A DNA stretch of 64,000 nt. It comes from Owenia fusiformis. Its lineage: Eukaryota > Annelida > Polychaeta > Sabellida > Oweniidae. Location of the stretch: positions 35,519,759 to 35,583,758 of the forward strand of contig CAIIXF020000009.1 in NCBI GenBank assembly GCA_903813345.2, in the 5' to 3' direction. Position 1 is the first letter of the stretch; each line of letters begins with the position of its first letter. Positions 2,926 to 62,469 of this stretch are shown here, one piece after another. The notes below the pieces were generated by a model that did not search any database, was not told the origin of the DNA, and saw only the letters and a list, made by a program, of their open reading frames with translations. A program made the translations under genes and the position numbers.

Positions 2926-5900
2926 TCATGTTTTGATATATAGTAGCTGCAGTAGCTTTGGTTGAAATATATTGTCCTGGAACAACAAAATCAAATATTT
3001 GGAGAATATGAACATCATAAAATTCAGTTGCATATATATCCGTATGAATTTTTATATAATACGTCAATAAATCCAAATTTCTTTTAATATTTGAAGATCT
3101 TCTAAGAAATATCACTCAAAATTGTTGTAAGAAAAAGTCTGACCAGCTATACACCTTAATGACTCGCAACAGAAATCATGATCTCATAAGGATGGTATGA
3201 CTCCACCAATAACTTACGTCTTGTGATACGATTGGACATATTATGGCGCTCTGTACAATCTCCATAGCTCTGACAACATTTTCAGTAGTTTTAGTTGAAA
3301 TATCTTGTCCTGGAACAACAAAATCAAACATTTGGAGAATATGATCATCATAAATTTCAGTTGCATATATATTTGTATGAATTTTTATATAAAACAATAA
3401 CTCCCAATTTCTTTTAATTTATGAAGATCTCCTAAGAAATATCACTCAAAAAAGGTCAGACCAGCTATACACCTTAATGAATCGCAACAGAAGTCATGAT
3501 CTCATAAGGATGGTATGACTCCACCAATAACTTACGTCTTGTGATACGATTGGCCATTTTATGGCCCTCTGTAGAATCTCAATAGCTTTGTCAATCTTTT
3601 TCTGGTCAATCATTGCCTACAAGAAACAGAATTCATCACAAAAATCTGACGTATTCACGGGAAATTTCTAAGGAAACCAAAGCCATGTGACACCGTGTGG
3701 TAAATGTATTTTACATTATCATTACCCTGGTATCATCGGGGCATACCCACACGGTATGATGGCTACGCAAGGGGCTATATTATCTTGGATTCTGCCCGTT
3801 TTATAAATTTCTGCCTCCTTGTCTTATTGGTCTTTTGACTAAACTTGATGTCTGTTAGAGATTTAAAAATGGCATCTTCTGAAAATGATGATCGCCTTTT
3901 TACGATTTCTGATAGTGACAATTAGAATTCTGTACCTTTGCTAAGTAGAATGCATTTTCCTTCCATTGTGGCCATATTTCATTAGCTTTGAGGAGGTCTT
4001 CAACTCCTTCAGGGACAGTTGCTGTTGGTGGTGTCGCGAAAAATGTCGCTGCAAGTTTCCTCTGCATCCAGTTAAGGGACGCCACCTATAAAAATCAAAG
4101 CGTTCAATAAGTTACTTTTTTGCTGTTTGACTGTATTAGACACATTGATCTATATATTTCATACGAGAGCAACATTTAAAACTTCTTGTAGAGTTATGTA
4201 ACATTAAGTGGATGTTAAAGCTAGTGGGGTGAAAATATATTTATTTGACACCCTGTACAAAATAAATGAATTATATCACACCACATTAAAGCATACGATA
4301 ACGTTCATGTGAAACTATAAACACTAATAGGGAGGTAAAGCTACACGTAAGCGTTCTAAGCGAACTTAACGTGAACGTGTGATATTACGACTCATGCAAT
4401 CACCGTCCTTCTCTCAATTGAATTTTTCTTGTACCGATATACTCAATCGGGCAAATAAATACGACGAAAGGAAGAACTGAAGTCTAGAGATGCTACACTT
4501 TCAAGGCAAGTACATATGGTTGGCCTATTAGTATAAAGAATACATGCGTTGTTTACGGGTGTGTAGGCGTTAATTACGCCCGTGTAGGCGTTAATTACGC
4601 CCGTCAAAGCGTTAATTACGCCCGTTAAGAAGTGAATTCTATACGCGTTAAAACAAATACAGGCGTAAACTAACGGCGTTAAAATGTTCAATAGCGGGCG
4701 TCAAGACAGTATCTAACACCCGTTGAAAAACATCTATACGCCCGTCGAGTTCATTTTAGCGCCGTGAATTATGAACCAATCAGCATCTTGCTTACATGAT
4801 GATACGATGCATTATAGCTAAAAGTACAACTCCGAGATCCTTGTGCAAGTTAATAACATACTCATGATTGTGCCAGGAACAACTGTTGCAATTGGAGGCA
4901 TATGAAATATTATTTCTTTTCTGGGTGTCTCGGTGCACTATTTCTGCAAATGTGAAAGATGTACATCGTATATTAAATGAGTTATGTATTCCTGGAAATA
5001 ACATGTGACATATAAAGACGGCTGCATAAAGATTCCAAAAAGTACACTCCCCTCCATAAGTTTGGCAACCTTTTTTCCCCCATTGAACTACGTGTTAAAG
5101 CCTCTTTACCTTTGACTTTTTATTTACTTAACCTGCGATGAAAATACTTATACTATTGATGGAAACGTAATTTGACTTTAATTCCAATACCTCCAAATTT
5201 TCTCAATTTTTTTCCTCAATTACAGTAGGTCGAAGATTGATGATGAATTTGATAAATTTTTGAAAATCGACATTTCCATGTTAACCAATGGGAAATGGTA
5301 GGTTTGCCGCAAGTCATATGACAGAATATCCATCCATCCGAGTCCTTGCAAAAAATACGAGTTAGTCAGGTAATTTAATTTGCTTACTTTATTTAACAAA
5401 AAATTGATATGTTTCTTCAGGTTCAACAAAGTTATAGGGCTTTAAAGTCAAAATTGTTTTTCAAAAAAACTCTCCCATTGAAATAACACAGGAGGCGAAA
5501 ATTCTTTTCAAAAATGACTTTGAAGCGCTGTAACTTTAATATTCATCAAATAAACTAAACACTTAGTGTTCAAAAAAGTTAGACAATTCAATTTTCTATA
5601 TGAAAATATTTTTTGCTGAATCTTTTACTGAAAAGATATCCTGATTTCTGATTTGCCCCGAACCCTCCATTTCCCATTGGATTACATGGGAATGACGATT
5701 TTCAAAAATTCACCAAATTTATCATCAATTTTCGACCTATTGTAATTGAGGAAAAAAATTGAGAAAATTTGGAGGTATTGGAAATAAAGTCAAGTTACGT
5801 TTCCATTAATATTATAAGTTATTTCATCGCCGGTCAAGTAAATAAAAATTCAAACGTAAAGAGGCTTTAACACGTAATTCAATGGAGAAAAAAGGTTGCC

Positions 5901-8900
5901 AAACTTATGGAGGGGAGTGTACACATCTCCCTAACACCAAATTTGAACATATGTTGGCTAGGTATACTAGGTATATAGGCTCATTTGACATTTTCAGTAC
6001 GTTTTCAAAAAATGCCAGATCTGCAGGATATAGTCTAGAGTCAATTTGCAGTTGATCAGATACTATAATTCTAGTATCTGGACACATCCTTTAGAGGGAT
6101 ACACTAGCGATCTGACTGTATAATGAGACTGTAAGCTGCAATGCGTGTGAGCTTAATAAGTCCCTACCTAGCCTACCTCTGAAGCCGATGCCTAGATTGG
6201 AGAATTATCCAAAAATCATCGTATTTAGAAACCAAACATGTATACCTTCTCAAAATATTCTGCAATTTTGTCGTTTCTACAATGGGTGTTGATAACTGCC
6301 AACACAGTACATGTCTTTTCAATTTGCCTTTTAATATGATTTACTAAAAAATGAATACTTCTTTGGTTAAATCTAGTTCAATCTTGAACGAATATTATTA
6401 AGGACCTCAATGCAACACACTAAAATGTAAGCAGGCTTCTGATTGTTGTTTACTAGCGCAAGTATCTCGGAGTTGCTCTTTTAGCAAGGATGCATTAAAT
6501 CATCGTGTAAGTAAGGTTCTGATTGGTTCATAATTTACGGCGCTAAAAATAAACTCCACTGGCGTGAAGATGTTTCTCAGCGCGTGTAAAATAACAGTCT
6601 TAACGCCCGTAATTAATAATTTCAACGCCGTAAGTTCACGCCTGTAAATGTATTCTGAACGCCCGTAGAATTTACTTCTTCACGGGCGTAATTTACGCCT
6701 ACACAGGCGTAATTTTTCGTCAGCACGGGCGTAATTTTACATCTACACGAGCGTAATTAACGCCTACACACCCGTAAACTATGGTTGGCCTATTAGTATA
6801 AAGAATGCATGCGTTGTTTACGGGTGTGTAGGCGTTAATTACGCTCGTGTAGATGTAAAATTACGCCCGTGCTGACGAAAAATTACGCCTGTGTAGGCGT
6901 AAATTACGCCCGTGAAGAAGTAAATTCTACGGGCGTTCAGAATACATTTACAGGCGTGAACTTACGGCGTTAAAATTATTAATTACGGGCGTTAAGACAG
7001 TTATTTTACACGCGCTGAGAAACATCTTCACGCCCGTCGAGTTCATTTTAGCGCCGTGAATTATGAACCAATCAGCATCTTGCTTACATGATGATACGAT
7101 GCATTATAGCTAAAAGTACAACTCCAAGATCCTTGTGCAAGTTAATAACATACTCATGATTGTGCCAGGAACAACTGTTGCAATTGGAGGCATATGAAAT
7201 ATTATTTCTTTTCTGGGTATCTCGGTGCACTATTTGTGCAAATGTGAAAGATTTACATCGTATATTAAATGAGTTATGTATTCCTGGAAATAACATGTGA
7301 CATATTAAGACGGCTGCATAAAGATTCCAAAAAGTACACATCTCCCTAACACCAAATTTGAACATATGTTGGCTAGGTATATAGGCTCATTTGACATTTT
7401 CAGTACATTTTCAAAGAATGCCAGATCTGCAGGATATAGTCTAGAGTCAATTTGCAGTTGATCAGATACTATAATTCTAGTATCTGGACACATCCTTTAG
7501 AGGGATACATTAGCGATCTGACTGTATAATGAGACTGTAAGCTGCAATGCGTGTGAGCTTAATAAGTCCCTACCTAGCCTACCTCTGAAGCCGACGCCTA
7601 GATTGGAGAATTATCCAAAAATCATCGTATTTAGAAACCAAACATGTATACCTTCTCAAAATACTCTGCAATTTTGTCGTTTCTACAATGGGTGTTGATA
7701 ACTGCCAACACAGTACATGTCTCTTCAATTTGCCTTTTAATATAATTTGCTCTAAAAAATGAATACTTCTTTGGTTAAATCTAGTTCAATCTTGAACGAA
7801 TATTTAAGGACCTCAATGCAATACACTAAAATGTAAGCAGGCTTCTGATTGTTGTTTACTAGCGCAAGTATCTCAGAGTTGCTCTTTTAGCAAGGATGCA
7901 TTAAATCATCATGTAAGTAAGGTTCTGATTGGTTCATAATTTACGGCGCTAAAAATAAACTCCACGGGCGCGAAGATGTTTCTCAGCGCGTGTAAAATAA
8001 CAGTCTTAACGCCCGTAATTAATAATTTTAACGCCGTAAGTTCACTCCTGTAAATGTATTCTGAACGCCCGTAGAATTTACTTCTTCACGGGCGTAATTT
8101 ACGCCTACACAGGCGTAATTTTTCGTCAGCACGGGCGTAATTTTACATCTACACGAGCGTAATTAACGCCTACACACCCGTAAACAACGCATGCATTCTT
8201 TATACTAATAGGCCAACCATAGTAAACAACGCATGCATTCTTTATACTAATAGGCCAACCATAAGTACAATTTAAATACGTGTAGTTACAACCTCCAAAT
8301 TACCTCAAGGCACCATCGTCCTCTCAGATAATACGCCACTGGGTCATCAGGATTCAGAGAAATAGCCTTGTCAATTCGTTCCTACAAACATGAGAAACAC
8401 GTACATGAAAATGAACGAAATATAGTATTATATCTTAAAACGTTTTTTTTAAATATATTTGGATGATCATGGCTGGTCAGTGATCATATAACCCAACTAG
8501 AAAGGTATTTGAATCTTACTACTCTCTATTGTTATAGTAAAGATCGAATGAGAAAAAATACAGGGTGGGCCAAAAAAGTTCTTTTTTTTTATTTCGATAT
8601 TACTTTTTTGAAAATTCATGGATTTCAATAAAATTTTGGCAAGATATGTAGAAATCAATCTTACAATTGTTCCTGAAGTAGCATAAATCTACTATCTTGG
8701 ATATGAGTTAAACTAGAACATGTAAATAGCTCAACTGGCGGAGTCTCCACAAATGGGAGGGCATGTCACTTATTTTTGTCTTACTTCATGTTAATTTCCA
8801 ATTTATAACTCATAACTTATATCATGAGCTCTTAAGAGGAAGCCCATGACAAAATCGCATGGAATTTAAGCCATCTGAAAATGTGTGATGTAAATTTTTT

Positions 8901-11900: not shown

Positions 11901-14540
11901 GAAAGCAGTCAACGGTCAATGTGCATGTTTTGTTTCAGAAAGCAGTCATCGGTCAATGTGCATGTTTTGTTTCAGAAAGCAGTAAACGGTCAATATGCAT
12001 ATTAGGTTTCAGACGGCATGGCAGATGGGTGTGAAAAAAGATAATTTACAACTACTACTAGGAAAAACCACAGAACTCATCGGAGCATATGAACTAACCT
12101 TAATGACGAAACTCTTTTCTATTTTTTCCTTAATTATTCCCTTGGCTTCCGATAAAGCACACAGAATTGTGACATACCTGCAATGTTAATGAACAATCTT
12201 GGAATGAACTACCGATTCATGTAGTTTGTAAAGACGTCAATAACCTTATTCATTGTTTCGTAGCATTTCAGGAAAATAGGACACGTGATGAGTAACAGTT
12301 CAGGTGTAAAAAGGTAGGTGGTCCTATCAAATGTTGGTCCTACTCTCTATTGATTTATATGGTGACCTAATTACAATTATTTTCCTTATTATTTATACAG
12401 TCAGGGCCAGTAAGGGCCGTTAGGAAAGGGGACCATAATCCCCAGGGGACCATAATTTCTTTTACACCGGGAGTAACAGTAACAGTCACATATTCAGCAG
12501 TATTCAAAGTGTTCAGAAACGTAGTGATCTGGTCTACACAAGTAATACTTTCAACAAAAAATGTCATTCGCCTACCATTTGTTTACCCTGGCGTCTTCTG
12601 GTTTAAGTTCAAACGCTCTTTGCATCACTGCGTTAGCCTCGTCCAAAGTAGACTTGTGCTTCGACTTGTTCCTTTCTACTAAATGAACTAGAGCTACCGA
12701 ATGAATGAAACAAGCATATCTCCATAGGAAATTGGCGTCGTTCTTGTACTGAAATGTAAAAGTTACAACGTTTTAGTACCCAGAAGAATGCCCGGGCCAG
12801 AATGACCATTCAAAATGAACAATACTACTATGGCTAGGTCTAACGCGTGGCTGGATCTAATGTCTTACATTGTCTTTCTCTTTTGTCATGATGTCATAAA
12901 CATCTCGTATCTGTTGTGGCGTTCCAGCCCAGGTGATGTCGTCAAGTTTGTTTGAAGTAAGAAGGTCCTCTAAAGATGGTGGCCATTCGCCATATGACTC
13001 CCCATCCCTATAAATATACAATTGACACAAATTAAAACTACACCGACATAAAATATGATGTAAGCAGATTAGAATATGGTACCAAAAAACGTTAGGGAAT
13101 ATGGAAGAGTAGACACAGGCATGGGAAAACAGTAGCAGTCCCCGATATCCAATTAATGATCCAAATTACAAAGAAACAAGGTCTTAAGCACGTCCTAACT
13201 CCACCCAAAATCCAGGAATCGTGTTCACAATCCACAGCCACAAGACAATGATTGAGACATTTCTTTAATACATCAATTTAAGGTTCAAGAATATATTTCA
13301 TGGTCATCATTTCAATTTATTAAATTGTCTTTGAAATAATATGTTCATGACTTCAGAAGATTGTCTTAAATCCGACAATGGCTTAGCCTTTCAATACTTA
13401 CGGGATTTTTGTGAAGTTCATTACACCAATAGCATCACCGCACGTGTAACTCTGAAACAATAAAACATCACCCGTTTCAATAAAGTGTATTTAAACAAAC
13501 CATTTGGAGACTTCAAAATCAAGCATAAACGCCATTCTGATACTCATAGCATCTTTCTGTTTCTCCTGAAGGGCTGAGAAGAAATGAGATGTCATGGTTT
13601 ATCATGATGCATAAACGCTGGTATCTCCAACAGAAACACTTTAGCGTCTGGGTACCCGAATATGATGCTTCATCAAGACATATCATTCGATATTCATGCA
13701 CTTTTCCAATATTTAAATGTTTATTTTCATTTCTCATGTTATACATGTAGGCTCGTCTTATCTTCAGAGTTATATCATTTATGTTATAATATTTATTGTA
13801 CCGCTCTCAATGTGTTTGCATCTATTGGTTCTCTGATAGTTGTGCAGTCAAAATCGCCTCTTTGGCTCATCTTTAAGTTGTCACCATCGATCGAATAGAC
13901 AATCTGGAAACGTATGAGTACAAAAAGCCATTTATTTGACAGCTGAAAGTATAGTAAGTTAGTAGTATTGGTATATTTTGGTAAATGAGGATAAATATAA
14001 TATGTGTGGTCTTTATGACTTACGTGAATTTGACGACCATCAACTGTCATTTCTTCAAATTCCTTTCCAAGTTCAAATGTTGAAGTTGAACGTGTCCCAA
14101 ATTTAGACACTTCTTTGATGGTCCATTTGTTGCCATCTTGGGATATGAAGTGAGCGACTTCTGTGTCACTAAGGATGTTATTTCGGAAACCTTTTGACAA
14201 GCCTTAAAAATCACATAAAGTTATATAACAAGACTAGATAACTAAAATTGAATATAACCATTTGGATCAAAATGTTGAAAGGCTATGAAATTTGTCTTTT
14301 CATCACCATGACCGAACGCTCTACCAATGGGTCACGATACCTAAGTGCTCTATCAATGGGTAACCTGGTCGATATGTAGGCCTATACTTAAAATTTGATA
14401 GACAATAATAGAAGATAGTGTTTGATGAAAACAAGAGCATATATTGCATCTAGCCTACTCAGCTGTAACATACCTATTTTGAGGAGAAATTCCTCCATAT
14501 TATTCAGACTCACGAGCCTCCATCGTCCTTCTACAGCCAT
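2926..14540 (-). CDS. FABP-RMDN fusion gene, copy 1 (11 coding exons, 382 aa)
   Basis: Exons by hand splicing, all with GT..AG borders and matching phases: 14540-14474, 14202-14024, 13903-13802, 13451-13402, 13007-12869, 12748-12576, 12177-12099, 8381-8304, 4085-3936, 3616-3536, 2976-2926 (1149 nt with stop). E1-E4 encode a complete lipid-binding beta-barrel: it starts [10 protein letters not shown], has GNKWTIKE and GKEFEE, and ends with [11 protein letters not shown]. Exon sizes 67/179/102 and the phase 1 then 0 introns match FABP genes. Instead of a stop, E4 runs in phase into E5-E11, which resemble RMDN/FAM82 TPR proteins ([54 protein letters not shown]). The ATG at 14540 has a favourable context (AAC before it, G after). 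No signal peptide or membrane segment is seen, so a cytosolic lipid-binding protein is inferred. The E7-E8 intron holds tRNA-Leu genes, a minisatellite and a TIR element. Splicing is unproven. Confidence 0.8.
3218..3309 (-). pseudogene. chimeric exon made from E11 and E10
   Basis: Between E11 and E10 of copy 1 is a third exon-like block with an acceptor and a donor. It opens like the terminal exon ([10 protein letters not shown]) but continues into the end of E10 in another frame, and finishes at the E10 donor. Spliced after E10 it would add about 22 residues and then hit a stop at 3243-3241, giving a different C-terminus. It probably arose by partial tandem duplication of E10-E11 with an internal deletion. 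Confidence 0.6.
4517..8262. mobile_element. composite foldback element with repetitive arms
   Basis: Inserted in the E8-E9 intron of copy 1. The other three cassettes show the uninterrupted site, and AGTACA is repeated at both edges. Ends read ATGGTTGGCCTATTAGTATA inward. Two element bodies lie head to tail (about 4517-6780 and 6781-8218), followed by an extra end copy (8219-8262). The arms of about 280 bp are packed with short words such as GGCGTAATT and GCGTTAATTACG. No coding region is seen. Superfamily unknown. Confidence 0.75.
5045..5919. mobile_element. TA-flanked MITE with long inverted arms, nested in the foldback element
   Basis: 875 bp with TIR CACTCCCCTCCATAAGTTTG, flanked by TA on both sides. 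The sister body at about 7335 has the empty site. The arms, about 5045-5290 and 5690-5919, are imperfect inverted repeats. The TA duplication fits the Tc1/mariner group. No transposase frame is seen. Confidence 0.8.
8460..9074. other. intron spacer with a truncated MITE end
   Basis: Contains, near 8561, one end of the MITE that is complete at 22700-22915 (CAGGGTGGGCC followed by an A run). The rest is duplicated intron spacer also seen near 22920-23400 and 46860-47110. No gene. Confidence 0.5.
9075..9155 (-). tRNA. tRNA-Leu, anticodon AAG
   Basis: Matches the 1038-1118 copy throughout: 81 bases, anticodon loop TTAAGGC, intact A box (TGGCCGAGCGG) and B box (GGTTCGAATCC). A T6 terminator follows on the minus strand. 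It lies inside the E7-E8 intron of fusion copy 1, in the same direction as the host gene. Confidence 0.95.
9440..9716. mobile_element. small TIR element (MITE) between two tRNA genes
   Basis: Perfect 18-bp TIRs (AGTTCAACAAGTTAAACC), with ATTATTAAT repeated just outside both ends. Matching spacers near 23987, 31610 and 47690 lack it. Inside are further hairpins: one based on TTAAACCCAATACCACGG, and a right-hand one (9645-9710) that also occurs near 17483-17545. Confidence 0.75.
9854..9933 (-). tRNA. tRNA-Leu, anticodon UAG
   Basis: 80-base copy with anticodon loop TTTAGGC and all stems intact. A T5 terminator follows. It pairs with the AAG gene at 9075 in the recurring AAG-UAG order. Confidence 0.95.
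10310..10722. mobile_element. insertion in the spacer, with an inverted relative at 16.05-16.39 kb
   Basis: The copy 2 spacer (near 52795-52806) runs straight across this point, so about 410 bp were gained here. Part of it (about 10380-10570) matches 16060-16250 in inverted orientation. Ends are not sharply defined. No gene. Confidence 0.5.
10730..10782 (-). pseudogene. tRNA-Leu relic (3' half)
   Basis: T arm and variable-region remnant with many substitutions. An almost equal relic lies at 52811-52862 at the same distance from E7 of copy 2, so it predates the duplication of the two genes. Confidence 0.6.
11098..12014. repeat. 37-bp minisatellite, about 24 copies
   Basis: Tandem unit built on GCATGTTTTGTTTCAGAAAG followed by CAGTCAACGGTCAATGT. 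Because 37 is not a multiple of 3 and the unit lacks stops, all three plus-strand frames stay open for 280-330 codons. These frames are artefacts. The array starts about 85 bp past the E7 donor of copy 1. The matching place in copy 2 (about 53150-53215) has fewer than two units. Confidence 0.95.
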
Positions 14541-20001: not shown

Positions 20002-21547
20002 TTATTTCTTATGTTTTGATAGTAGCTGCTGTAGTTGTGGTTGAAATATCTTGTCCTGAAACAACAAAATCAAACATTTGGAGAGTATGAACATAATAAA
20101 TTTCAGTTGCATATATATCCGTATGAATTTTTATATAAAACAATAACTCCCAATTTCTTTTAATTTTGGAAGATCTCCTAAGAAATATCACTCAAAATTG
20201 TTGTAAGAAAAAGTCTGATCAGCTATACACCTTAATGACTCGCAACAGAAGTCATGAACTCATAAGGATGGTATGACTCCACCAATAACGTACGTCTTGT
20301 GATACAATTGGACATGGTATGGCCCTCTGTAGAATCTCAATACCTTTGTCAACCTTTTTCTGGTCAATCATTGCCTACTAGAAACAGAATTCATCACATA
20401 AATCTGACCTATGCACGGGGAATTTCTATGGAACCCGAAGCCATGTGATACCGTTTGGTAAATGTATTTTACATTATCATTACCCTGGCATCATCGGGGC
20501 ATACCCACACGGTATGATGGCTACGCAAGGGGCTATATTATCTTGGATTCTGCCCGTAGGTTTCTGCCTCCTTGCCTTATTGGTATTTTGACTAAACTTG
20601 ATATATGACGTGTCTGTGAGAGATTTAAAAATTGCATATCTTCTGAAAATGATGATCGCCTGTTTACGATTTCTGATAGTTACAATTAGAATTCTGTACC
20701 TTTGCTAAGTAGAATGAATTTTCCTTCCATTCTGGCCATATTTCATTAGCTTTGAGGAGGTCTCCAACTCCTTCAGGGACAGTTGCTGTTGGTGGTGTCG
20801 CGAAAAATGTCGCTGCAAGTTTCCTTTCTATCCAGCTAAGGGACGCCACCTATAAAAATCAAAGCGTTCAATAAGTTACTTTTTGCTGTTTGACTGTATT
20901 AGACACATTGATCTATATATTTCATACGAGAGCAACACCACACTACAGGGTGCCAAATAAATATGTTCTCCCCTTAATTTCAAAAGGAATAAACGTTTGT
21001 GCATAAAAGTGCATCTAGTTGAGCTAGTCATCTGAAATTCTTGTATAGTTGCTCCATGAAGCCTAGCTAGTTTAATGTACTACAGAACAATTCAGATATC
21101 ATGCAGACAGAAAAGTTATGCAACATTATGTGGATGTTAAAGCTGGTGGGGTGAGAATATATTTATTTGACACCTGTACAAAACAAATGAATTATATCAC
21201 ACCACATTAAAGCATACAATTACGTTCGTGTGAAACTATACACACTAATAGGAGGGTAAAGCTACACGTAAGCGTTCTAAGCGAACTTAACGTGAACGTG
21301 TGATATTACGACTCATGCAATCACCTTGCCTCTCTCAATTGAATTTTTCTTGTACTGTTATACTCAATCGGGCAAATAAATACGACGAAAGGAAGAACTG
21401 AAGTCTAGAGATGCTACACTTTCAAGGGAAGTACAAGTTAAATACGTGTAGTTACAACCTCCAAATTACCTCAAGGCACCATCGTCCTCTTAGATAATAC
21501 GCCACTGGGTCATCAGGATTCAGAGAAATAGCCTTGTCAATTCGTTC
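20002..21547 (-). CDS. orphan RMDN tail cassette II (E8-E11), intact
   Basis: Four exons at 21547-21470, 20849-20700, 20374-20294 and 20055-20002 repeat E8-E11 of the fusion gene, with the same lengths (78/150/81/54 nt), phases and splice borders, all open. Differences from copy 2 are few (one E-to-G change in E9; A-to-G in E10). No E1-E7 block precedes it within about 32 kb, so it is either an alternative tail for the gene starting at 55462 or a silent duplicate. It cannot be translated alone, because it begins at a phase-0 acceptor without an initiator. Confidence 0.7.
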
Positions 21548-28772: not shown

Positions 28773-30307
28773 TTATTTCTTATGTTTTGATAGTAGCTGC
28801 TGTAGTTGTGGTTGAAATATCTTGTCCTGGAACAACAAAATCAAACATTTGGAGAATATGAACATCATAAATTTCAGTTGCATATATCCGTATGAATTTT
28901 TATATAAAACAATAACTCCAAATTTCCTTTAATTTTTGGAGATCTTACAAATATCACTCACAGTTGTTACACAAGAAAAAGTCTGATCAGCTATATACCT
29001 TAATGACTCGCAACAGAATTCATGAACTCATAAGGATGGTATGACTCCACCAATAACTTACATCTTGTGATACGATTGGACATGGAATGGCCCTCTGTAG
29101 AATCTCAATAGCTTTGTCAACCTTTTTCTGGTCAATCATTGCCTACAAGAAACAGAATCCATCACATAAATCTGACCTATTCACGGGGAATTTCTAAGGA
29201 ACGCAAAGCCATGTGATACCATAAATGTATTTTACATTACCATTACCCTGGCATCATCGGGGCATACCCACACGGTATGATGGCTACGCCAGGGGCTATA
29301 TTATCTTGGATTCTGCCCGTTTTATAAGTTTCTGCCTCTTTGTCTTATTGGTATTTTGACTAAACTTTATGACGTGTCTGTTTGAGATTTAAAAGTGGCA
29401 TATCTTCTGAAAATGATGATCGCCTGTTTACGATTTCCGAAAGTTACAATTAGAATTCAGTACCTTTGCTAAGTAGAATGAATTTTCCTTCCATTCTGGC
29501 CATATTCATTAGCTTTGAGGAGGTCTTCAACTCCTTCAGGGACAGTTGCTGTTGGTGGTGTCGCGAAAAATGTTGCTGCAAGTTTCCTTTCTATCCAGCT
29601 AAGGGACGCCACCTATAAAAATCAAAGCGTTCAATAAGTTACTTTTTGCTGTTTGACTTTATTAGACACATTGATCTATATATTTCATATGAGAGCAACA
29701 CCACACTACAGGGTGCCAAATAAATATGCCCCCCTTAATTTCAAAGGGATAAACGTTTGTGCATAAAATTGCATCCAGTTGAGCTAGTCATTTGAAACTT
29801 CTTGTAGAGTTGCTCCATGAAGCCTAGTTTTAATGTACTAATGAACAATTCAGATATCATGCAGATAGAAAAGTTATGCAACATTATGTGGATGTTAAAG
29901 CCAGTGGGGTGAGAATATATTTATTTGACACCCTGTACAAAACAAATGAATTATATCACACCACATTAAAGCATACAATTACGTTCGTGTGAAACTATAC
30001 ACACTAATAGGGAGGTAAAGCTACACGTACGCGTTCTAAGCGAACTTGAACGTGAACTTGTGATATTACGACTCCTGCAATCACCGTCATTCTCTCAATT
30101 GAATTTTTCTTGTACCGATATACTCAATCGGGCAAATAAATACGACGAAAGGAAGAACGGAAGTCTAGAGATGCTACACTTTCAAGGCAAGTACAAGTTA
30201 AAAATGTGTAGTTACAACCTCCAAATTACCTCAAGGCACCATCGTCCTCTCAGATAATACGCCACTGGGTCATCAGGATTCAGTGAAATAGCCTTGTCAA
30301 TTCGTTC
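28773..30307 (-). pseudogene. RMDN tail cassette III (E8-E11), frameshifted
   Basis: Exon-like blocks at 30307-30230, 29612-29464, 29142-29062 and 28826-28773 match E8-E11. The E9 block is 149 nt rather than 150: one T is missing in the run near 29504 (plus strand CATATTCATT, where the others have CATATTTCATT). This shifts frame after KAN and soon gives a stop. The other three exons and all splice borders are intact, so the damage looks recent. Confidence 0.8.
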
Positions 30308-38684: not shown

Positions 38685-40430
<1,746 letters not shown>

Positions 40431-44642: not shown

Positions 44643-44648
44643 TTTATT
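44643..44648 (-). promoter_or_regulatory. AATAAA signal overlapping the stop codon of copy 2
   Basis: The minus strand reads AAG AAA TAA AAA, so the TAA stop lies within AATAAA. The same overlap occurs in cassettes II and III. Confidence 0.35.
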
Positions 44649-47600
44649 TCTTATGTTTTGATAGTAGCTGCTGTAGTTGTGGTTGAAATATCTTGTCCTG
44701 GAACAACAAAATCAAACATTTGGAGAATATGAACATCATGAATTTCAGTTGCATATATATCCGTATGAATTTTATATAAAACAATAACTCCCAATTTCTT
44801 TTAATTTTGGAAGATCTCCTAAGAAATGTCACTCAAAATTGTTGTAAGAAAAAGTCTGATCAGCTATACACCTTAATGACTCGCAACAGAAGTCATGAAC
44901 TCATAAGGATGGTATGACTCCACCAATAACTTACGTCTTGTGATACGATTGGACATGGTATGGCCCTCTGTAGAATCTCAATAGCTTTGTCAACCTTTTT
45001 CTGGTCAATCATTGCCTGCAAGAAAAAGAATTCATCACATAAATCTGACCTATGCACGGGGAATTTCTGTGGAACCAAAGCCATGTGATACCGTGTGGTA
45101 AATGTATTTTACATTATCATTACCCTGGCATCATCGGGGCATACCCACACGGTATGATGGCTACGCAAGGGGCTATATTATCTTGGATTCTGCCCGTTTT
45201 ATAGGTTTCTGCCTCCTTGTCTTATTGGTATTTTGACTAAACTTGATATATGACGTGTCTGTTAGAGATTTAAAAATGGCATCTTCTGAAAATGATGATC
45301 GCCTTTTTACGATTTCTGATAGTTACAATTAGAATTCTGTACCTTTGCTAAGTAGAATGAATTTTCCTTCCATTCTGGCCATATTTCATTAGCTTTGAGG
45401 AGGTCTTCAACTCCTTCAGGTACAGTTGCTGTTGGTGGTGTCGCGAAAAATGTCGCTGCAAGTTTCCTTTCTATCCAGCTAAGGGACGCCACCTATAAAA
45501 ATAAAAACAAAGCGTTCAATAAGTTACTTTTTGCTGTTTGACTGTATTAGACACATTGATCTATATATTTCATACGAGAGCAACACCACATTACAGGGTG
45601 CCAAATAAATATGTTCTCCCCCTTAATTTCAAAAGGAATAAACGTTTGTGCATAAAATTGCATCTAGTTGAGCTAGTCATCTGAAATCTTGTAGAGTTGC
45701 TCCATGAAGCCTAGCTAGTTTAATGTACTAAAGAACAATTCAGATATCATGCAGACAGAAAAGTTATGCAACATTATGTGGATGTTAAAGCTAGTGGGGT
45801 AATATATTTATTTGACACCCTGTACAAAACAAATGAATTATATCACACCACATTAAAGCATACAATTACGTTCGTGTGAAACTATACACACTAATAGGGA
45901 GGTAAAGATACACGTACGCGTTCTAAGCGAACTTGAACGTGAACTTGTGATATTACGACTCCCGCAATCACAGTCCTTCTCTCAATTGAATTTTTCTTGT
46001 ACCGTTATACTCAATCGGGCAAATACATACGACGAAAGGAAGAACGGAAGTCTAGAGATGCTACACTTTCAAGGCAAGTACAAGTTAAATATGTGTAGTT
46101 ACAACCTCCAAATTACCTCAAGGCACCATCGTCCCCTCAGATAATACGCCACTGGGTCATCAGGATTCAGTGAAATAGCCTTGTCAATTCGTTCCTACAA
46201 ACATGAGAAACACGTATATGAAAATGAACGAAATATAGTATAATATGTTAAAACGTTTTTTAAAATATATTTGGATGATCATGGCTGGTCAGTGATCATA
46301 ACCCCAACTAGAAAGGTATTTGAATCTTACTTCTCTCTATTGTTATATTAAAGATCGAATAAGAAAAAATACAGGATGGGCCAAAAAAACGTTCATATAA
46401 ATTCATTTCGATATAACTTTTTTGAAAATTCATGGATTTCAATAAAATTTTCGCAGGGTATGTAGAAATCAATCTTACAATTGTCCTGAAGTGGCATAAA
46501 TGAATCTCTAGGATATTGAGAAATACAAAAGGTAAAGGTAAACAGACACCAGGGGTCTATTTCAAAATGGACATTTTTATTCATATTGAAAGGGACAATG
46601 TTTTTTATATGCTTTCGCATTGATAACGACACGTTTATACTTATTCACGCTTTATACTATACACGATGAGAAAAAATTTTGGCAGCGGTGGGATTCGAGC
46701 CACGCCTCCGAAGAGACTGGTGCCTTAAACCAGCGCCTTAGACCGCTCGGCCACGCTACCTTGACACGATGGATGTAATAAACACTATGATTATTAAAGG
46801 CAAGTTTGTTATGATAAATTAACTATTTTTGGCAAACCCCCTTCACTAACAAGAGTATAGTATCTACTGTCATGGATATGAGTTAAACTAGAACCTATAA
46901 ATAGCTCAACTGGCGGAGTCTCCACAAATGGGAGGGCATGTCACTTATTTTTGTCTTACTTCATGTTAATTTCCAATTTATAACTCATAACTTATATCAT
47001 GAGCTCTTAAGAGGAAGCCCATGACAAAATCGCATGGAATTTAAGCCATCTGAAAATGTGTGATGTAATTTTTTTTATTTGTCTGTGATATATTGAAAGT
47101 AATACACTTTGCATTCGTTTGAACCCCCGCCTCCGAAGAGACTGGTGCCTTAAACCAGCGCCTTAGACCGCTCGGCCACGCTACCTGAGAGATGTTGGGT
47201 AAACACTATGATTTGTAAAGGCAAGTATGTTATGATAAAAAGTAGACTAACTATTTTTGGCAAACCCCCTTCACTAACAAGAGTATAGTATCTACTGTCA
47301 TGGATATGAGTTAAACTAGAACATGTAAATAGCTCAACTGGCGGAGTCTCCACAAATGGGAGGGCATGTCATTTATTTTTGTCTTACTTCATGTTAATTT
47401 CCAATTTATAACTCATAACTTATATCATGAGCTCTCAAGAGGAAGCCCATGAAAAATCGCATGAGATTTAAGCCATCCGGTCGCAGATTCTAAACTTAAC
47501 AAAATCCTTATAAAAATCGCTCAGAACTATTATAATTGTGATTTGCAGTCATCTTATTAAATTAGATAAAACCTTTGAACTGGCTTTAGAACTTTGAACA

Positions 47601-50600: not shown

Positions 50601-53600
50601 GTCATATAAAACTGTGATATATTGAAAGTAACAATGCATTGATTACGACACGTTGGAGTAAACATGACGATTAAAAACTATTAGCAGCGGTGGGATTCGA
50701 ACACGCCTCCGAAGAGACTGGTGCATTAAACCAGCGCCTTAGACCGCTCGGCCACGCTACCTTCCATACTAACGATGAACAGACACTATGATTAGTAAAG
50801 GCACCCTATTTTTGGCAAACAACCTTCGCTCACATTCGTACCTTGAATTAGTTTATTTAAAGTTGATAAAATTGATAAAAATTAATGGCAAGTGGGATTC
50901 GAACCCATGCCTCAATGAGACTGGTGCCTAAAACCAGCGCCTTAGACCGCTCGGCCACGCTACCTGCTACGTGTGATCGCTTGTGTTTATTTTTTCAACA
51001 GATGAATCATAGTGACATGATTATATCAATACGCATTGTATTGAAAAGCTCCTTTTCATTTCTCTTTTACATATAGTGTAGCTTACATTACACCCAGAGG
51101 CACACAATATATTTCTATTGTTATATTTTCCTTTTTTGTCTGATATATTGTTCATCATGTAGCAAAATACAAAGTAAGTTCAGAAATTAAGACTGCATTT
51201 ATTTTCATTAAGTTAATTTTGAAATCGGTTAAACAGTGACATCGTACATTTAAAGGGTATAACGGTATATTTTGTCACTGCACCTTATCGATGGTTAGAC
51301 GTGTGAACATGTTGGACATGTCAAGTCTTTGTGAATACGATACGTTGAAGTAAACATGACGATTAAAAACTATTGGCAGCGGTGGGATTCGAACCCACGC
51401 CTCCGAAGAGACTGGTGCCTTAAACCAGCGCCTTAGACCGCTCGGCCACGCTACCTTCCATACTGACGATGAATAAACACTATGATTCGTAAAGGCAATA
51501 AGACAACCTATTTTTGGCAAACATCTTTCGCTCACATTCGTACCTTGGACATGTCAAGTCTTTGGGTATATGATTTAGAACAAATTACTGCTCAACTGGC
51601 AGGACCTCCCCTAGTGGTAGGGCATGTCACTTATTTTTCTTCCTTCCTTCATGTTAATTTCCAATTCTAATAACTTATATTGGTACAATATCGCATGAAA
51701 TTTAAAGCCATCTGGTCACAGAAACTAAAGATCATGAATTCCTTGAAGAACAAAAACTCAAGAATCGCTCAGAACTATAACTAATTGTGATTTGCAATCA
51801 TCTTTTTTTAGAATTTAAATAAACAGATTAAATGTATTAATAAATTAATTTTGCGATATATATTTCAAAACATAATGGTTTAAGTCTATGTCTATGTCAC
51901 CTGTACGTTTTATTTGTATTTGTAAGATTAAACCTTTAGAACTTTGAACAAACACTTCGTTGAAGATAACCTTTTCATCTCTACGTTAGTATCCATTCTC
52001 AAAACATAAGACATCGATGTAAGAATTAAGTTGAGCTTTTATGATATTGCATACGCATTATTGTAAATCAAGTGTTTGACGCTCACAGAACTCGTGTAAC
52101 CTCATCAAATCTCATGTCACATGTACATTTTGTACTAAGGCGGAGTTAGTTTATAATGTCTGGCACGTTGATACCTTGAATGGTTCATGGGCAGTTTGAT
52201 TTGAAGACTGAAGCCAAAATCGAAGTACCAAAATATTTAGATGAATGCTGCATATCGATTCGAAATAGAATGAAGAACTATTGTTGTAACATATTATCTT
52301 GCAATAAAGAAAAAACGTTGATAAAAATAATGGCAGCGGTGGGATTCGAACCCACGCCTCAATGAGACTGGTGCCTAAAACCAGCGCCTTAGACCGCTCG
52401 GCCACGCTACCTCTTGGAACGCAGAAATTCTTTTGCTTATTTGAATGAAAAGGATGAATCATCGTGCTAATTGATAAGCACAGCGATTGATATTTGAGAT
52501 ACTTTACACTTTATAAAAAATAGCACTACCTATATAACACCCAGAGAAGTGAGATATTTTTAATTGTTATATAATGTTAATGTTAAAAATATTGAAAAAT
52601 GAAGACTTATTATATTTTCATTAAATCCATGAGAAAGATTCATCAAGTCATTCATGAAGTTAGTAATTAGTAACAGCAGGTGATTGTTGTCGGCTTTGTT
52701 TATTTGCGTTAATAGATATGTTAAATCATTGCCATCTATCATTGTATCAAAAAGTAACTTTCACCATACACTTCATACACTGTCAAAGGCATCGTGTTTT
52801 TAAAGTATTTTGGCAGCTGCCGATCATTCGAACCCATGCCTCCTAAAGCATTGCCGAAAACCGGACACACTTCCTCCCATACATACATACCTAATATTTA
52901 TTAAAATTCGAATCAAGGACAAGTGATCACGTTACCTGAACGTTTTAAACATTTAGCACTTTTTGTGGTGTTGGGTAATCTATGTATTTCGTGGGATACA
53001 AGTCCTAAATATCTAGACTTACTTATTGAAATAATTAATGATGGAATGTGTTTGAATATGAATGTTATTTAAACATTTAATTAGATATTGCTTTAAAAAA
53101 TCATAAGATGGTTAAAATTAATTGCGGCATTTTGTATTTCGATTGGTAAGAAAGCAGTCAATATGCATGTTTTGTTTCGGAAAGCAGTCAACGGTCAATA
53201 TGCATATTAAGTTTCAGGCGGCATGGCAGATGGGTGTGAAAAAAGATAATTTACAACTGCTATACTAGGGAAAATCAGAGAACTCATCGAGCATATGAAC
53301 TAACCTTAATGACGAAACTCTTTTCTATTTTTTCCTTCATTCCCATGGTTTCCGATAGAGCAGATAGAATTGTGGCACACCTGCAAAGTTAATGAACAAT
53401 CTTGGAATGTACCACCGATTCATGTACTTGAGTACAGAAGTAGTTTGTATAGACGTCAATAACCTTATTCATTGTTTCGTAGCATTTCAGGAAAATAGGA
53501 CACGTGATGAGTAACAGTTCCAGTGATCTGGTCTACACAAGTAATACTTTAATCAAAAAAATGTCATTCGCCTACCATTTGTTTACCCTGGCGTCTTCTG

Positions 53601-55462
53601 GTTTAAGTTCAAACGCCCTTTGCATTACTGCGTTAGCCTCGTCCAAAGTAGACTTGTGCTTCGACTTGTTCCCTTCTACTAAATGAACTAGAGCTACCGA
53701 ATGAATGAAACAAGCATATCTCCAAAGGAAATTGGCGTCGTCCTTGTACTGAAATGTAAAAGTTACAACGTTTTAGTACCCAGTAGAATGCCCGGGCCAG
53801 AATGACCATTCAAAATGAACAATAGTTCTATGGCTAGGTCTAATGTGTGACTGGATCTAGTGTCTTACATTGTCTTTATCTTTTGTCATGATGTCATAAA
53901 CATCTTGTGTCTGTTTTGGCGTTCCAGCCCAGGTGATGTCGTCAAGTTTGTTTGAAGTAAGAAGGTCCTCTAAAGATGGTGGCCATTCGCCATATGACTC
54001 CCCATCCCTATAAATATACAATTGACATCAATTAAAACTACACCGACATAAAATATGATGTAAGCAGATAAGAATATGGTACCAGAAAACGTTAGGAAAT
54101 ATGGAAGAGTAGACACAGGCATGGGAAAACAGTAGCAGTCCCCGATATCCAATTAATGATCCAAATTACAAAGAAACAAGGTCTTAAGCACGTCTTAACT
54201 CCACCCAAAATCCAGGAATCGTGTTCACAATCCACAGCCACAAGACAATGATTGAGACATTTCTTTAATACATCAATATAAGGTTCAAGAATATATTTCA
54301 TGGTCATCATTTCAATTTATTAAATTGTCTTTGAAATAATATGTTCATGACTTCAGAAGATTGTCCATGTTGTCTTAAATCCGACAATGGCTTAGCCTTT
54401 CAATACTTACGGGATTTTTGTGAAGTTCATTACACCAATAGCATCACCACACGTGTGAGTCTGAAACAATAAAACATCACCCGTTTCAATAAAGTGTATT
54501 TAAACAAACCATTTGGAAACTTCAAAATCAAGCATAAACGCTGGTAACTCCAACACAAACACTTTATTGTCTGGGTACCCAAATATGATGCTTCATCATG
54601 AAATATCATTTGATATTCATGTACTTTTCCAATATTTAAATGTTTATTTTCATTTCTCATGTTATAGGCTCTTATCTTCAGAGTAATATCATTTATGTTA
54701 TAATATTTATTGTACCGCTCTTAATGTGTTTCCATCTATTGGTTCTCTGATAGTTGTGCAGTCAAAATCGCCTCTTTGGCTCATCTTTAAGTTGTCACCT
54801 TCAATCGAATAGACAATCTGGAAAAGTATGAGTACAAAAAGCCATTTATTTGACAGTTGAAGATATAGTAAGTTAGTAGTCTTGGTATATTTTGGTAAAT
54901 GAAGAGATATGTGGTCTTCATGACTTACGTGAATTTGACGACCATCAACTGTCGTTTCTTCGAATTCCTTTCCAAGTTGAAATGTTGAAGTTGAACGTGT
55001 CCCAAATTTAGACACTTCTTTGATGGTCCATTTGTTGCCATCTTTGGATATGAAGTGAGCGACTTCGGTGTCACTAAGGATGTTATTTCGGAAATCTTTT
55101 GACACGCCTAAAAATATATAAACGAGACTAAATAACTAAAATTGAATATAACCATTTGGATCAAAATGTTGAAAGGCTATGATGTTTGTCTTTTCATCAT
55201 CATGACCAAACGCTCTACCAACGGGTCACTATGCCCAAACCCTCTACAGTGGGTCACGATACTTAAGTGCACTACCAATGGGTAACCTGGTCGATATATA
55301 GGCCTATACTTTAAAGTTGATAGACAATAATACAAGATAATCTATGATGAAAACAAGAGCATATATTGCATCTAGCCTACTAAGCTGTTACATACCTATT
55401 TTGAGGAGAAATTCCTCCATATTATTCAGACTCACGAGCCTCCATCGTCCTTCTACAGCCAT
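44644..55462 (-). CDS. FABP-RMDN fusion gene, copy 2 (11 coding exons, 382 aa)
   Basis: Exons: 55462-55396, 55107-54929, 54817-54716, 54460-54411, 54007-53869, 53748-53576, 53380-53305, 46194-46117, 45492-45343, 45015-44935, 44697-44644 (1149 nt). All have GT..AG borders, matching phases and open frames. The FABP part keeps [18 protein letters not shown] and [13 protein letters not shown]; the RMDN part keeps [29 protein letters not shown] and [10 protein letters not shown]. Against copy 1 there are scattered replacements (for example VSKDF for LSKGF), E7 is one codon shorter, and the terminal exon is one codon longer (ends LLSKHKK). Its 7-kb E7-E8 intron carries the densest tRNA-Leu cluster and a TTAA-flanked element. 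Transcription could continue to tail cassettes III and II, offering alternative C-termini. The role is inferred: binding a fatty acid-like ligand together with an RMDN-type TPR scaffold. The model is made by eye, without transcripts. Confidence 0.8.
46681..46760 (-). pseudogene. tRNA-Leu(AAG) with 1-base loss in the T arm
   Basis: 80 bases where intact copies have 81. The T arm reads GTGGCTCGAAT rather than GTGGGTTCGAAT, which damages the B box. The rest is intact. Confidence 0.75.
47117..47185 (-). pseudogene. tRNA-Leu(AAG) truncated at its 3' end
   Basis: The 5' two thirds are intact. Inside the T arm the sequence switches to spacer that otherwise stands near 8931-8945 (TTTGCATTCGTTTGA). 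The join lies in a short TTCG/TTTGA match, pointing to a crossover between unit copies. Confidence 0.8.
47838..47917 (-). tRNA. tRNA-Leu, anticodon UAG
   Basis: 80 bases, all stems intact, anticodon UAG, T5 terminator. Confidence 0.95.
48334..48358 (-). pseudogene. tRNA-Leu relic, 3' part, split by an insertion
   Basis: T-arm remnant that continues at 50395-50426 after removal of the TTAA element between them. Confidence 0.65.
48363..50390. mobile_element. 2.03-kb TTAA-flanked TIR element inserted in a tRNA relic
   Basis: TTAA at 48359-48362 and 50391-50394. Perfect 18-bp TIRs GGATATACCAGTGTAACC. Removing it rejoins the two halves of a tRNA-Leu relic. The TTAA duplication is typical of piggyBac-like transposition. 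No transposase frame remains (the longest minus-strand frame, 50177-49869, is unlike any family I know). Confidence 0.88.
50395..50426 (-). pseudogene. tRNA-Leu relic, 5' part
   Basis: Contains the rearranged 5' end (GCGTGGCCGAGCGGTC on the minus strand); partner of 48334-48358. The flanking CTCTCGCACATACGTGA matches the flank of the 36835 relic. Confidence 0.65.
50683..50761 (-). pseudogene. tRNA-Leu-derived copy with anticodon AAT
   Basis: 79 bases, two bases missing from the T stem. The anticodon loop reads TTAATGC, so the former AAG has become AAT (an isoleucine-type anticodon). T-arm damage makes function unlikely. Confidence 0.75.
50887..50964 (-). pseudogene. tRNA-Leu(UAG) with 2-base loss at the acceptor end
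   Basis: 78 bases. The 3' acceptor strand reads CACTTGCC in place of CACCGCTGCC, so the acceptor stem cannot pair fully. One T-stem base is also changed. Anticodon UAG is kept. Confidence 0.75.
51375..51455 (-). tRNA. tRNA-Leu, anticodon AAG
   Basis: 81 bases, same as 1038 and 9075 throughout. T5 terminator. Confidence 0.95.
52332..52411 (-). tRNA. tRNA-Leu, anticodon UAG
   Basis: 80 bases, same as 9854 throughout. T5 terminator. It is the tRNA gene nearest to E7 of copy 2. Confidence 0.95.
52811..52862 (-). pseudogene. tRNA-Leu relic (3' half)
   Basis: Near copy of the 10730-10782 relic, at the same distance upstream of the minisatellite site and E7. Confidence 0.6.
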
Positions 55463-60789: not shown

Positions 60790-62469
60790 TCACTTAAAAC
60801 TGCACATTTTATGCTTCTCATTCATGTCATTAGTATGAAGTTTTTCATGCTCCTTCAAGGAACACTTTTGATTGAAACATTTATCACATATTTTACACTT
60901 AAATGGTTTCTGTCCAGTATGTATAATTTTATGCCTATTTAAAGAGGAACTTTGGTTGAAATGCTTACCACATACTTTACACTTAAATGGTTTCTCTCCA
61001 GTATGTATAACTTCATGCTTCTTTAATTGACTACTTCGTGGAAAGCACATTGCACAAATTTTACTCTGAAATGTTTTCTCAAGAGTGTGCATTTGTACAT
61101 GTTTATTGAAGGTTTTACTACGATTAAAATATTTCACACAAACTTTACACTTGAATGGTTTCTCATTCTTATGTACTTGTTCATGTCTCTTTAAATTTCT
61201 ACTGTGAGTGAAGCATTTTTTCACAAAGTTTACAGTTAAATTGTTTTTCACCAGAATGTACCAGTAAATGATTATTCAAATTACTCTTATGATTAAAACA
61301 TTTTTCACAAGTTTTGCACTTAAATGGTCTCTGATCAATGTGTATTCGTTGATGCTGTTTTGAATTGCTCCTATCATTGAAATATTTTTCACAAGTTTGG
61401 CACTTGAAGAGTTCCTCACCAGTGTGTATTTGTTCATACTTGATTAAATTGCTTCTATTATTAAAAGATTTCTCATAAATTTTACACTTATATTGCATTT
61501 CACTGGTATGTACTTTTTCATGCTTTTTTAAATTCTTATGATGAGTAAAACATTTTTCACAAATTTTACACTTGAATGGGTTTTCACCAGAATGTACCAG
61601 TAAATGTTTATTCAAATTACTATCATGATTAAAACATTTTTTTACAAATTTCACACTTGTATGGTTTTTCACCAGAATGTACCAGTAGATGTTTGTTTAA
61701 ATTACTCTTATTGTTAAAACATTTTTCACAAAGTTTACACTTGAATGGTTTTTCACCAGAATGTACCAATACATGTTTATTTAAATTACTCCTATTGTTA
61801 AAACATTTTTTCACAAATTTTACACTTGAATGGTTTTTCACCAGAATGTACCAGTAAATGTTTATTTAAATTACTCTTATTGTTAAAAAAAAATTCATAA
61901 ATTTTACACTTGAATGGTTTTTCACCAAAATGTACCAGTACATGTTTATTTAATAACTCTTATTATTAAAACATTTTTCACAAATTTTACATCTACATGG
62001 CTTGTTACAAGTATGAATAAATTTTTGTCTTTTTAAATGAACAATATCAGTAAAAGAGCTCTCACAATCTTTGCACTTATATGATTTTTCTTTAGCATAA
62101 ATTCTGACACACTCGTTCAATTCACTATAGCTTACAGCTTTTTCCATTTCATCTGAATTAGGTTCAACAGCAAATACAGAGTTTCCAATTATAGTTTCCA
62201 TTTTCACTTCATTGTTATAATCAGGAGCAACTTTGGGTTGTTTATCAAAAGTGTAATATTAATTTCCTCAGGTTCATCTTTTATTGTTGGAATGGTAAAG
62301 TTTGAACCTTCTTGTTCATTTTCTGGTTCAACTTTCACCTCAACTCTTAAATCACACTTATATCCTTCATTGGCTATAATATCACTTAGTTCATTTTTAT
62401 GTTTTTGATGGAGCTTGCTTCATCAGAACTTGGTTCTTCTTTTGGATGTTGAAGACATAAAGACTCCAT
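60790..62469 (-). pseudogene. C2H2 zinc-finger gene with multiple frameshifts
   Basis: Starts MESLCLQHPKEEPSSDEASS at 62469, followed by an acidic stretch (VEVKVEPENEQ, TIKDEPEE) and then about 15 C2H2 units with HSGEKPFKC or HTGEKPFKC linkers, ending at the TAA at 60792-60790. Such proteins are nuclear DNA-binding regulators. The frame breaks at least six times: twice in the N-terminal part (about 62405 and 62256), near 61955, and at extra A bases in the repeated TGTGAAAAATGTTTT motif (about 61803, 61640, 61225). Fingers 3, 8 and 13 have lost a zinc-binding cysteine. The remaining open pieces are 62207-61950, 61841-61629, 61672-61199 and 61251-60790. Either a recent pseudogene or homopolymer errors; lost cysteines favour decay. 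Confidence 0.8.

What the first reader, a model, noticed from the sequence alone, without database searches (positions are those of the whole stretch)
12099..14540. A fatty-acid-binding domain fused in frame to an RMDN TPR domain
Seen: E1-E3 are 67, 179 and 102 nt with FABP-type phases; E4 carries the last FABP strand, then reads in phase into RMDN-type exons, with no stop between them. Both gene copies show it. Known: FABPs carry single fatty acids; the TPR domain of RMDN3/PTPIP51 has itself been shown to bind and move phospholipids at ER-mitochondria contacts. Inference: one polypeptide with two lipid-binding modules, perhaps a lipid handover protein. I know of no such architecture.
Basis: partly seen in the sequence, partly recalled or inferred. 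Interest (0 to 1): 0.93.

Follow-up and report, generated by a model that had tools for sequence, protein, structure and literature searches.

The report
Lipid carrier fused to contact-site protein
Two neighbouring gene copies in this animal genome appear to join a small fatty-acid carrier to the lipid-binding end of a protein known from contacts between cell compartments, by splicing straight through the carrier's own stop signal; RNA evidence is still needed.

Summary
Two minus-strand genes (window 14540-2926 and 55462-44644) each give 382 residues when 11 exons are joined. Both domains are significant in copy 1: RMD1-3 E=1.7e-30, Lipocalin/FABP E=4.3e-9; the best solved chain is the RMDN3 TPR domain, then brain FABP over residues 6-131.

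New facts: (1) The FABP stop codon is still there. Exon 4 reads ATC CC|GTAAGT, unspliced ATC-CCG-TAA, so the fusion exists only if that donor is used. (2) A canonical RMDN paralogue on contig C8 has matching exon phases and near-equal lengths from its exon 2 on; FABP exons E1-E4 stand in place of its exon 1 (membrane anchor), at the same phase-2 intron. (3) No anchor exon was found nearby; an RMDN-only start in E4 or intron 3 is possible.

I judge a genuine exon-shuffled fusion about 0.70 likely. There is no RNA, no second species and no significant purifying selection between the copies (p=0.06), which are recent duplicates. The fused FABP lacks RxY, recalled as carboxylate ligands; lipid handover stays a hypothesis.

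The parts
14474..14540 (-). Gene 1 E1, 67 nt, start codon and first FABP residues
   Evidence: Lipocalin 5-92
14024..14202 (-). Gene 1 E2, 179 nt, FABP
13802..13903 (-). Gene 1 E3, 102 nt, FABP; donor GCG|GTACAA is the weakest of the ten (4 of 9 consensus positions)
13402..13451 (-). Gene 1 E4, 50 nt, last FABP strand; phase-2 donor CCC|GTAAGT; contains an in-frame Met at 13421
13399..13401 (-). First three bases of intron 4 (GTA); with the preceding CC and the next A they make the unspliced CCG TAA stop
13008..13401 (-). Intron 4 of gene 1 (junction intron), 98.2% identical to copy 2; AATAAA starting at 13321
12869..13007 (-). Gene 1 E5, 139 nt, phase 2 to 0, first RMDN exon; no Met in the open stretch directly upstream of it
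   Evidence: corresponds to exon 2 (136 nt) of the C8 paralogue
12576..12748 (-). Gene 1 E6, 173 nt, RMDN; same length as C8 exon 3
12099..12177 (-). Gene 1 E7, 79 nt, RMDN
8304..8381 (-). Gene 1 E8, 78 nt, RMDN TPR
3936..4085 (-). Gene 1 E9, 150 nt, RMDN TPR
3536..3616 (-). Gene 1 E10, 81 nt, RMDN TPR; same length as C8 exon 6
2926..2976 (-). Gene 1 E11 with stop (a possible alternative last exon starts at about 3309)
55396..55462 (-). Gene 2 E1
54929..55107 (-). Gene 2 E2
54716..54817 (-). Gene 2 E3
54411..54460 (-). Gene 2 E4, same CCC|GTAAGT junction
53869..54007 (-). Gene 2 E5
53576..53748 (-). Gene 2 E6
53305..53380 (-). Gene 2 E7 (one codon shorter, in frame)
46117..46194 (-). Gene 2 E8
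45343..45492 (-). Gene 2 E9
44935..45015 (-). Gene 2 E10
44644..44697 (-). Gene 2 E11 with stop
29062..30307 (-). Extra E8-E10 module (c3) without E1-E7; E9 has a 1-nt deletion
20294..21547 (-). Extra E8-E10 module (c4) without E1-E7, frames open

Best explanation
A fusion gene, now in two tandem copies, made by exon shuffling. A four-exon FABP gene came to lie in front of an RMDN gene copy that lacks its first coding exon (in the paralogue: membrane anchor, coiled-coil-like stretch and acidic tract). The FABP stop codon is neutralised because a 5' splice site, GTAAGT, lies across it: splicing removes the TAA and leaves CC to complete a codon with the G that opens the first RMDN exon kept, in the same phase (2) as the lost exon 1. 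Product: about 382 residues, an FABP-type barrel followed by the RMDN TPR domain, with no membrane anchor. SHOWN: both domains, open frames, matched phases, retained stop under the donor, co-linearity with the canonical RMDN gene from its exon 2 on. INFERRED: that the message is spliced this way, and that the protein is a soluble carrier in which the barrel presents a small hydrophobic ligand next to a lipid-binding TPR superhelix instead of a membrane tether (this functional step about 0.3). The confidence below is for the fusion gene, not for the function.
For: Pfam RMD1-3 1.7e-30 and 2.8e-30, Lipocalin 4.3e-9 and 5.8e-10 on the two products; PDB 7cc7_A (RMDN3) 1.7e-29 over 155-377 and brain FABP 1.9e-13 over 6-131 (copy 1 only). 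The canonical RMDN on C8 (E=5.3e-41 to PF21033) has coding exons 347|136|173|154|153|81, phases 2,0,2,0,0,0; the fusion runs 139|173|79+78 (76+78 in gene 2, exactly 154)|150|81 with the same phases. So the junction sits at RMDN intron 1. C8 exon 1 has a hydrophobic stretch (max mean hydropathy 2.03) and no counterpart in the window or 20 kb either side (best E 1.7). The open stretch directly upstream of E5 has no Met (53 aa in copy 1, 7 aa in copy 2). Between the end of E3 and E5 the E4 donor is the only GT scoring at least 7 of 9 consensus positions, of 48 in copy 1 and 45 in copy 2. A stop inside GTAAGT is rare: 32 of 3456 TAA triplets in the window, both strands. In gene 1 the six introns from E1 to E7 are 120-398 nt (coordinates). 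The canonical FABP on C12 ends its exon 4 with an ordinary TAG at the matching place.
Against: No transcript data. The FABP stop is intact, so unspliced or early-polyadenylated message gives plain FABP; AATAAA begins 80 bases after the first base of intron 4. E4 holds an in-frame Met 20 nt before its donor in both copies, and intron 3 holds phase-2 ATG-donor pairs of score 6 of 9 (7 in copy 1, 3 in copy 2; those 3 have counterparts in copy 1), so an internal promoter could give RMDN without FABP. The E3 donor GTACAA is weak (4 of 9) and, unspliced, the third codon after E3 is a stop. Purifying selection between the copies is not significant (E1-E10: Sd 14 of 231.5, Nd 30 of 863.5, p=0.062; FABP alone 0.15, RMDN E5-7 0.25, E8-10 0.31); exon mismatch (31 of 789) is not significantly below intron mismatch (67 of 1318, p=0.24) and indel events do not differ (1 against 9, p=0.18). 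The copies are young, so two copies count nearly once. No spliced retrocopy was found. No second species could be searched.
Confidence: 0.7

Rival explanations
1. Two transcription units: a normal FABP gene ending at CCG TAA in E4, and an RMDN gene with its own promoter, starting at the Met in E4 (through the same donor) or at an exon in intron 3.
For: E4 with its stop has the canonical FABP end; AATAAA at 13321; in-frame Met in E4 at 13421 and 54430, and intron-3 ATG-donor pairs of score 6, three of them with counterparts in both copies.
Against: The E4 Met start still needs the same donor, so a message beginning at E1 would fuse as well; intron-3 donors are weaker than E4's (6 against 7); only 394 bases of intron 4 separate the FABP part and E5; no anchor exon nearby; a stop in GTAAGT is about a 1% event.
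Confidence: 0.14
2. Nested arrangement: FABP sits inside intron 1 of an RMDN gene whose own first exon lies upstream of E1 and skips the FABP exons.
For: The junction is at RMDN intron 1, phase 2, which is what a nested insertion would leave.
Against: No match to the C8 first exon in the window or 20 kb either side; scans upstream to 21440 (copy 1) and 67000 (copy 2) for phase-2 exons of at least 20 codons and donor score 7 or more found 3 and 2 distinct donors, none with hydropathy like the C8 anchor (best 1.21 against 2.03) and none shared; the BLAST homology between the copies ends 219-235 bases above E1 (alignments of 250 bases or more).
Confidence: 0.06
3. Decaying fusion: the join was made, but the copies are now dying, non-functional duplicates (this can be true together with the fusion as such).
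For: dN/dS 0.59, not significantly below 1; weak E3 donor; one extra 3' module has a frameshift; two of three FABP carboxylate-ligand residues (recalled) are replaced.
Against: No stop or frameshift in 382 codons in either copy and all intron borders kept, although 9 indel events hit introns 1-6; the E8-E10 module of gene 2 against c4 shows constraint (Sd 5, Nd 2, p=0.008), though gene 1 against c4 does not (p=0.64).
Confidence: 0.2

Closest known systems
RMDN3/PTPIP51 (Pfam PF21033, PDB 7cc7) and the C8 paralogue in this genome
   Same: TPR domain over nearly the whole profile (3-229 of 235 in copy 1); exon phases and near-equal lengths from exon 2 on.
   Different: N-terminal anchor exon replaced by an FABP; [quoted passage not shown] I found no anchor-like stretch here and did not test for an FFAT motif.
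Cytosolic FABP family (PF00061; FABP7; the C12 FABP of this genome)
   Same: Four-exon layout and alignment to FABP7 over residues 6-131; a four-exon, three-intron layout is called canonical for oyster iLBPs (passages of PMC5399370).
   Different: Message can continue past the stop; C-terminal RxY replaced by MxF.
Exon-shuffled, phase-matched gene fusions in general (recalled)
   Same: Join at a pre-existing intron with matching phase.
   Different: Here the upstream partner's stop codon is kept and lies under the new donor.

Membership tests
FABP / cytosolic lipid-binding proteins | Profile match over curated cut-off | tested here: met
   PF00061 37.1 and 40.0 bits, cut-off 23; the best stretch covers only profile positions 2-90 and 2-93 of 145
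[quoted passage not shown]
   67/179/102/50; the C12 paralogue has 173/105/51 for exons 2-4
FABP / cytosolic lipid-binding proteins | R..RxY fatty-acid carboxylate triad (recalled) | tested here: not met
   First R kept, RxY is MxF in both copies; C12 keeps RxY. In the alignment the first R of FABP7 is shifted by one column; it aligns
FABP / cytosolic lipid-binding proteins | Binds a fatty acid or similar ligand | not testable with these tools
   needs a binding assay
RMDN family | RMD1-3 TPR profile over cut-off | tested here: met
   106.4 and 105.7 bits, cut-off 26.7
RMDN family | Shared exon phases with a canonical family member | tested here: met
RMDN family | N-terminal anchor region | tested here: not met
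   no counterpart of C8 exon 1 in window or flanks; product max hydropathy 1.2 against 2.03
Single fused transcript | mRNA joining E4 to E5 | not testable with these tools
   no RNA data; the only indirect test, a spliced retrocopy, was negative

The most novel reading that the evidence does not exclude
A stop-or-splice switch: because the FABP stop codon lies under the junction donor, one gene makes either a free FABP (intron 4 retained, or polyadenylated at the AATAAA 80 bases in) or the FABP-RMDN fusion, so the choice at one 5' splice site sets the ratio of free carrier to carrier joined to a phospholipid-binding TPR domain. Intron 4 being the best conserved of introns 1-6 between the copies (7 of 394 mismatches against 60 of 924 in the others, p=0.0002) fits this, but gene conversion would explain it too.
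Probability: 0.25. Interest if true: 0.8.

Novelty: new variant of a known kind. Interest (0 to 1): 0.6.

Why it matters
If transcribed as modelled, it links in one chain two lipid-binding families that are usually studied apart, and frees the RMDN TPR domain from the membrane. It is also a clean example of how a fusion gene can arise without losing the upstream stop codon: a splice donor laid over it is enough. Both points can be tested with one cDNA experiment and one binding assay.

Tried and rejected
Separate RMDN start: my first scans reported no good alternative first exon, but they missed E4 itself (a slicing fault; one search scanned introns 3 and 4 only). The corrected scan finds, among 23 ATG-donor pairs in copy 1 and 29 in copy 2, one with donor score 7 or more in each copy (the Met inside E4, using the same donor) and 7 and 3 with score 6 in intron 3. 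For this I lowered the fusion from 0.75 to 0.70 and raised the two-unit rival. Nested first exon upstream: nothing anchor-like. Processed retrocopy as fossil of the spliced message: none at up to 3 mismatches. More copies within 20 kb on either side: none at E up to 1. Selection tests between the copies: not significant; E11, one unmatched codon of E7 and the frameshifted module c3 were left out. A second weak RMDN candidate on C8 (E=2.31) was fetched and gave a best match to RMDN3 of E=0.003; not pursued. Genome-wide family counts are lower bounds: the PF00061 search rang once, on C12, and did not list the window's own FABP exons, and PF14651 found only the window at E=1.82. I first took C12 exon 3 for 102 nt; it is 105. 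Papers: nine searches were answered; searches listed nothing; searches listed nothing that by title or abstract start describes such a fusion (one search showed 10 of 295); two searches were on PTPIP51 lipid transfer. The source paper on PTPIP51 lipid transfer (Yeo 2021) is not held, so I used passages of PMC9239997 and PMC9473665. Of papers I saw passages of those two and of PMC5399370, and search listings of the rest. The donor consensus, FABP carboxylate residues and general exon-shuffling knowledge are recalled. The donor score is a simple count of consensus matches, not a trained model.

Full report
What is there. On the minus strand the window holds two copies of an 11-exon gene, 14540-2926 and 55462-44644. 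Each gives 382 residues with GT-AG borders and consistent phases. Exon lengths 67, 179 and 102 are as stated.

Domains. Pfam finds RMD1-3 at 148-377 (E=1.7e-30) and Lipocalin/FABP at 5-92 (E=4.3e-9) in copy 1, and similar values in copy 2. Against solved structures the best chain for copy 1 is RMDN3 7cc7_A (1.7e-29, residues 155-377), followed by FABPs, with brain FABP aligned over 6-131. So the FABP half reaches its last strand.

The hidden stop. E4 ends AAA ATC CC and the intron opens GTAAGT. Read without splicing this is AAA ATC CCG TAA: a stop at the normal FABP end. The canonical FABP on contig C12 has a TAG at the matching place. Thus 'no stop between them' depends on that one donor. It scores 7 of 9 consensus positions; 7 of the gene's ten donors score 7 or 8. 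It is the only GT of 48 between the end of E3 and E5 in copy 1, and of 45 in copy 2, to reach 7. In the window 32 of 3456 TAA triplets lie in GTAAGT.

Where the join lies. A canonical RMDN gene lies on C8 (C8:36614261 to at least 36627476, 3' end not modelled; PF21033 E=5.3e-41 for the 348 residues modelled). Its exons are 347, 136, 173, 154, 153 and 81 nt; phases after each are 2, 0, 2, 0, 0, 0. The fusion from E5 on runs 139, 173, 79+78 (76+78 in gene 2), 150, 81 with the same phases; the E7-E8 border is an intron that the C8 gene lacks. The C8 first exon is inferred by me from an open frame with a start, a hydrophobic stretch and a phase-2 donor GTGAGT; it encodes an anchor-like stretch, a coiled-coil-like stretch and an acidic tract. 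FABP E1-E4 take the place of exactly that exon. No counterpart of it was found in the window or 20 kb on either side.

Can RMDN start by itself? The frame directly upstream of E5 is open for 53 residues in copy 1 and 7 in copy 2, with no Met. My first scans for another first exon missed E4. The corrected scan shows that E4 has an in-frame Met 20 nt before its donor in both copies, and that intron 3 has ATG-donor pairs of score 6 (7 in copy 1, 3 in copy 2; the 3 have counterparts in copy 1). So an internal promoter could give an RMDN-only protein; the E4 route uses the same donor and so does not argue against fusion of E1-started messages. Upstream of E1, to 21440 in copy 1 and 67000 in copy 2, scans for exons of at least 20 codons with donor score 7 or more gave 3 and 2 distinct donors, none anchor-like or shared.

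What is not shown. There is no RNA evidence. The copies are young: over E1-E10, Sd 14 of 231.5 and Nd 30 of 863.5 (p=0.062), so purifying selection is not demonstrated. Exons do not differ significantly from introns in mismatch (31 of 789 against 67 of 1318, p=0.24) or indel events (1 against 9, p=0.18). Between gene 2 and the extra module c4, E8-E10 show constraint (Sd 5, Nd 2, p=0.008), but gene 1 against c4 does not (p=0.64). The E3 donor GTACAA is weak. A retrocopy of the spliced junction was not found.

Function. The TPR domain of PTPIP51 transfers phosphatidic acid in vitro according to a citing paper (passages of PMC9239997). Here the anchor region is missing, so a tether role is unlikely and a soluble role more likely. 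In the FABP half the R and Y of the C-terminal RxY are M and F in both copies, while the C12 FABP keeps them; that these residues hold the fatty-acid carboxylate is recalled. A ligand other than a free fatty acid, or a structural role, is therefore as likely as a fatty-acid carrier. Two-module lipid handover remains a guess of about 0.3.

Locus. The array contains two further E8-E10 modules without E1-E7 at 30307-29062 and 21547-20294, and 16 tRNA genes, all minus strand, 6 within intron 7 of gene 2 and 2 within intron 7 of gene 1. Gene 2 could in principle splice E7 to any of three downstream modules.

Verdict. A phase-matched fusion gene model with an instructive junction; probability about 0.70 (0.75 before the corrected scan). 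A new combination of known domains, not a new kind of system. Interest 0.6, limited by the lack of transcripts and of a second species.

Noticed in passing
30307-29062 and 21547-20294: Two extra E8-E10 RMDN modules between gene 2 and gene 1, one with a frameshift in E9, one open and constrained against gene 2; possibly alternative 3' ends of gene 2.
   Followed up: partly
46195-53304 and 8382-12098; array at 293-52411: 16 tRNA genes (15 Leu, 1 Ile), all minus strand; 6 lie in intron 7 of gene 2 and 2 in intron 7 of gene 1, an intron the C8 paralogue lacks.
   Followed up: partly
13008-13401: Intron 4 is the most conserved of introns 1-6 between the copies (7 of 394 mismatches against 60 of 924).
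   Followed up: partly
11102-12013: 24.5 copies of a 37-bp tandem repeat just downstream of E7 of gene 1.
   Followed up: no
39011-40390: GACA repeated 345 times, 99% matches.
   Followed up: no
60867-61991: 84-bp tandem repeats of the kind seen in C2H2 zinc-finger genes (family not tested).
   Followed up: no
L030/L031, C8:36616896-36618995: A 700-codon open frame that looks like a non-LTR retrotransposon reverse transcriptase inside intron 1 of the canonical RMDN gene (family not tested).
   Followed up: no
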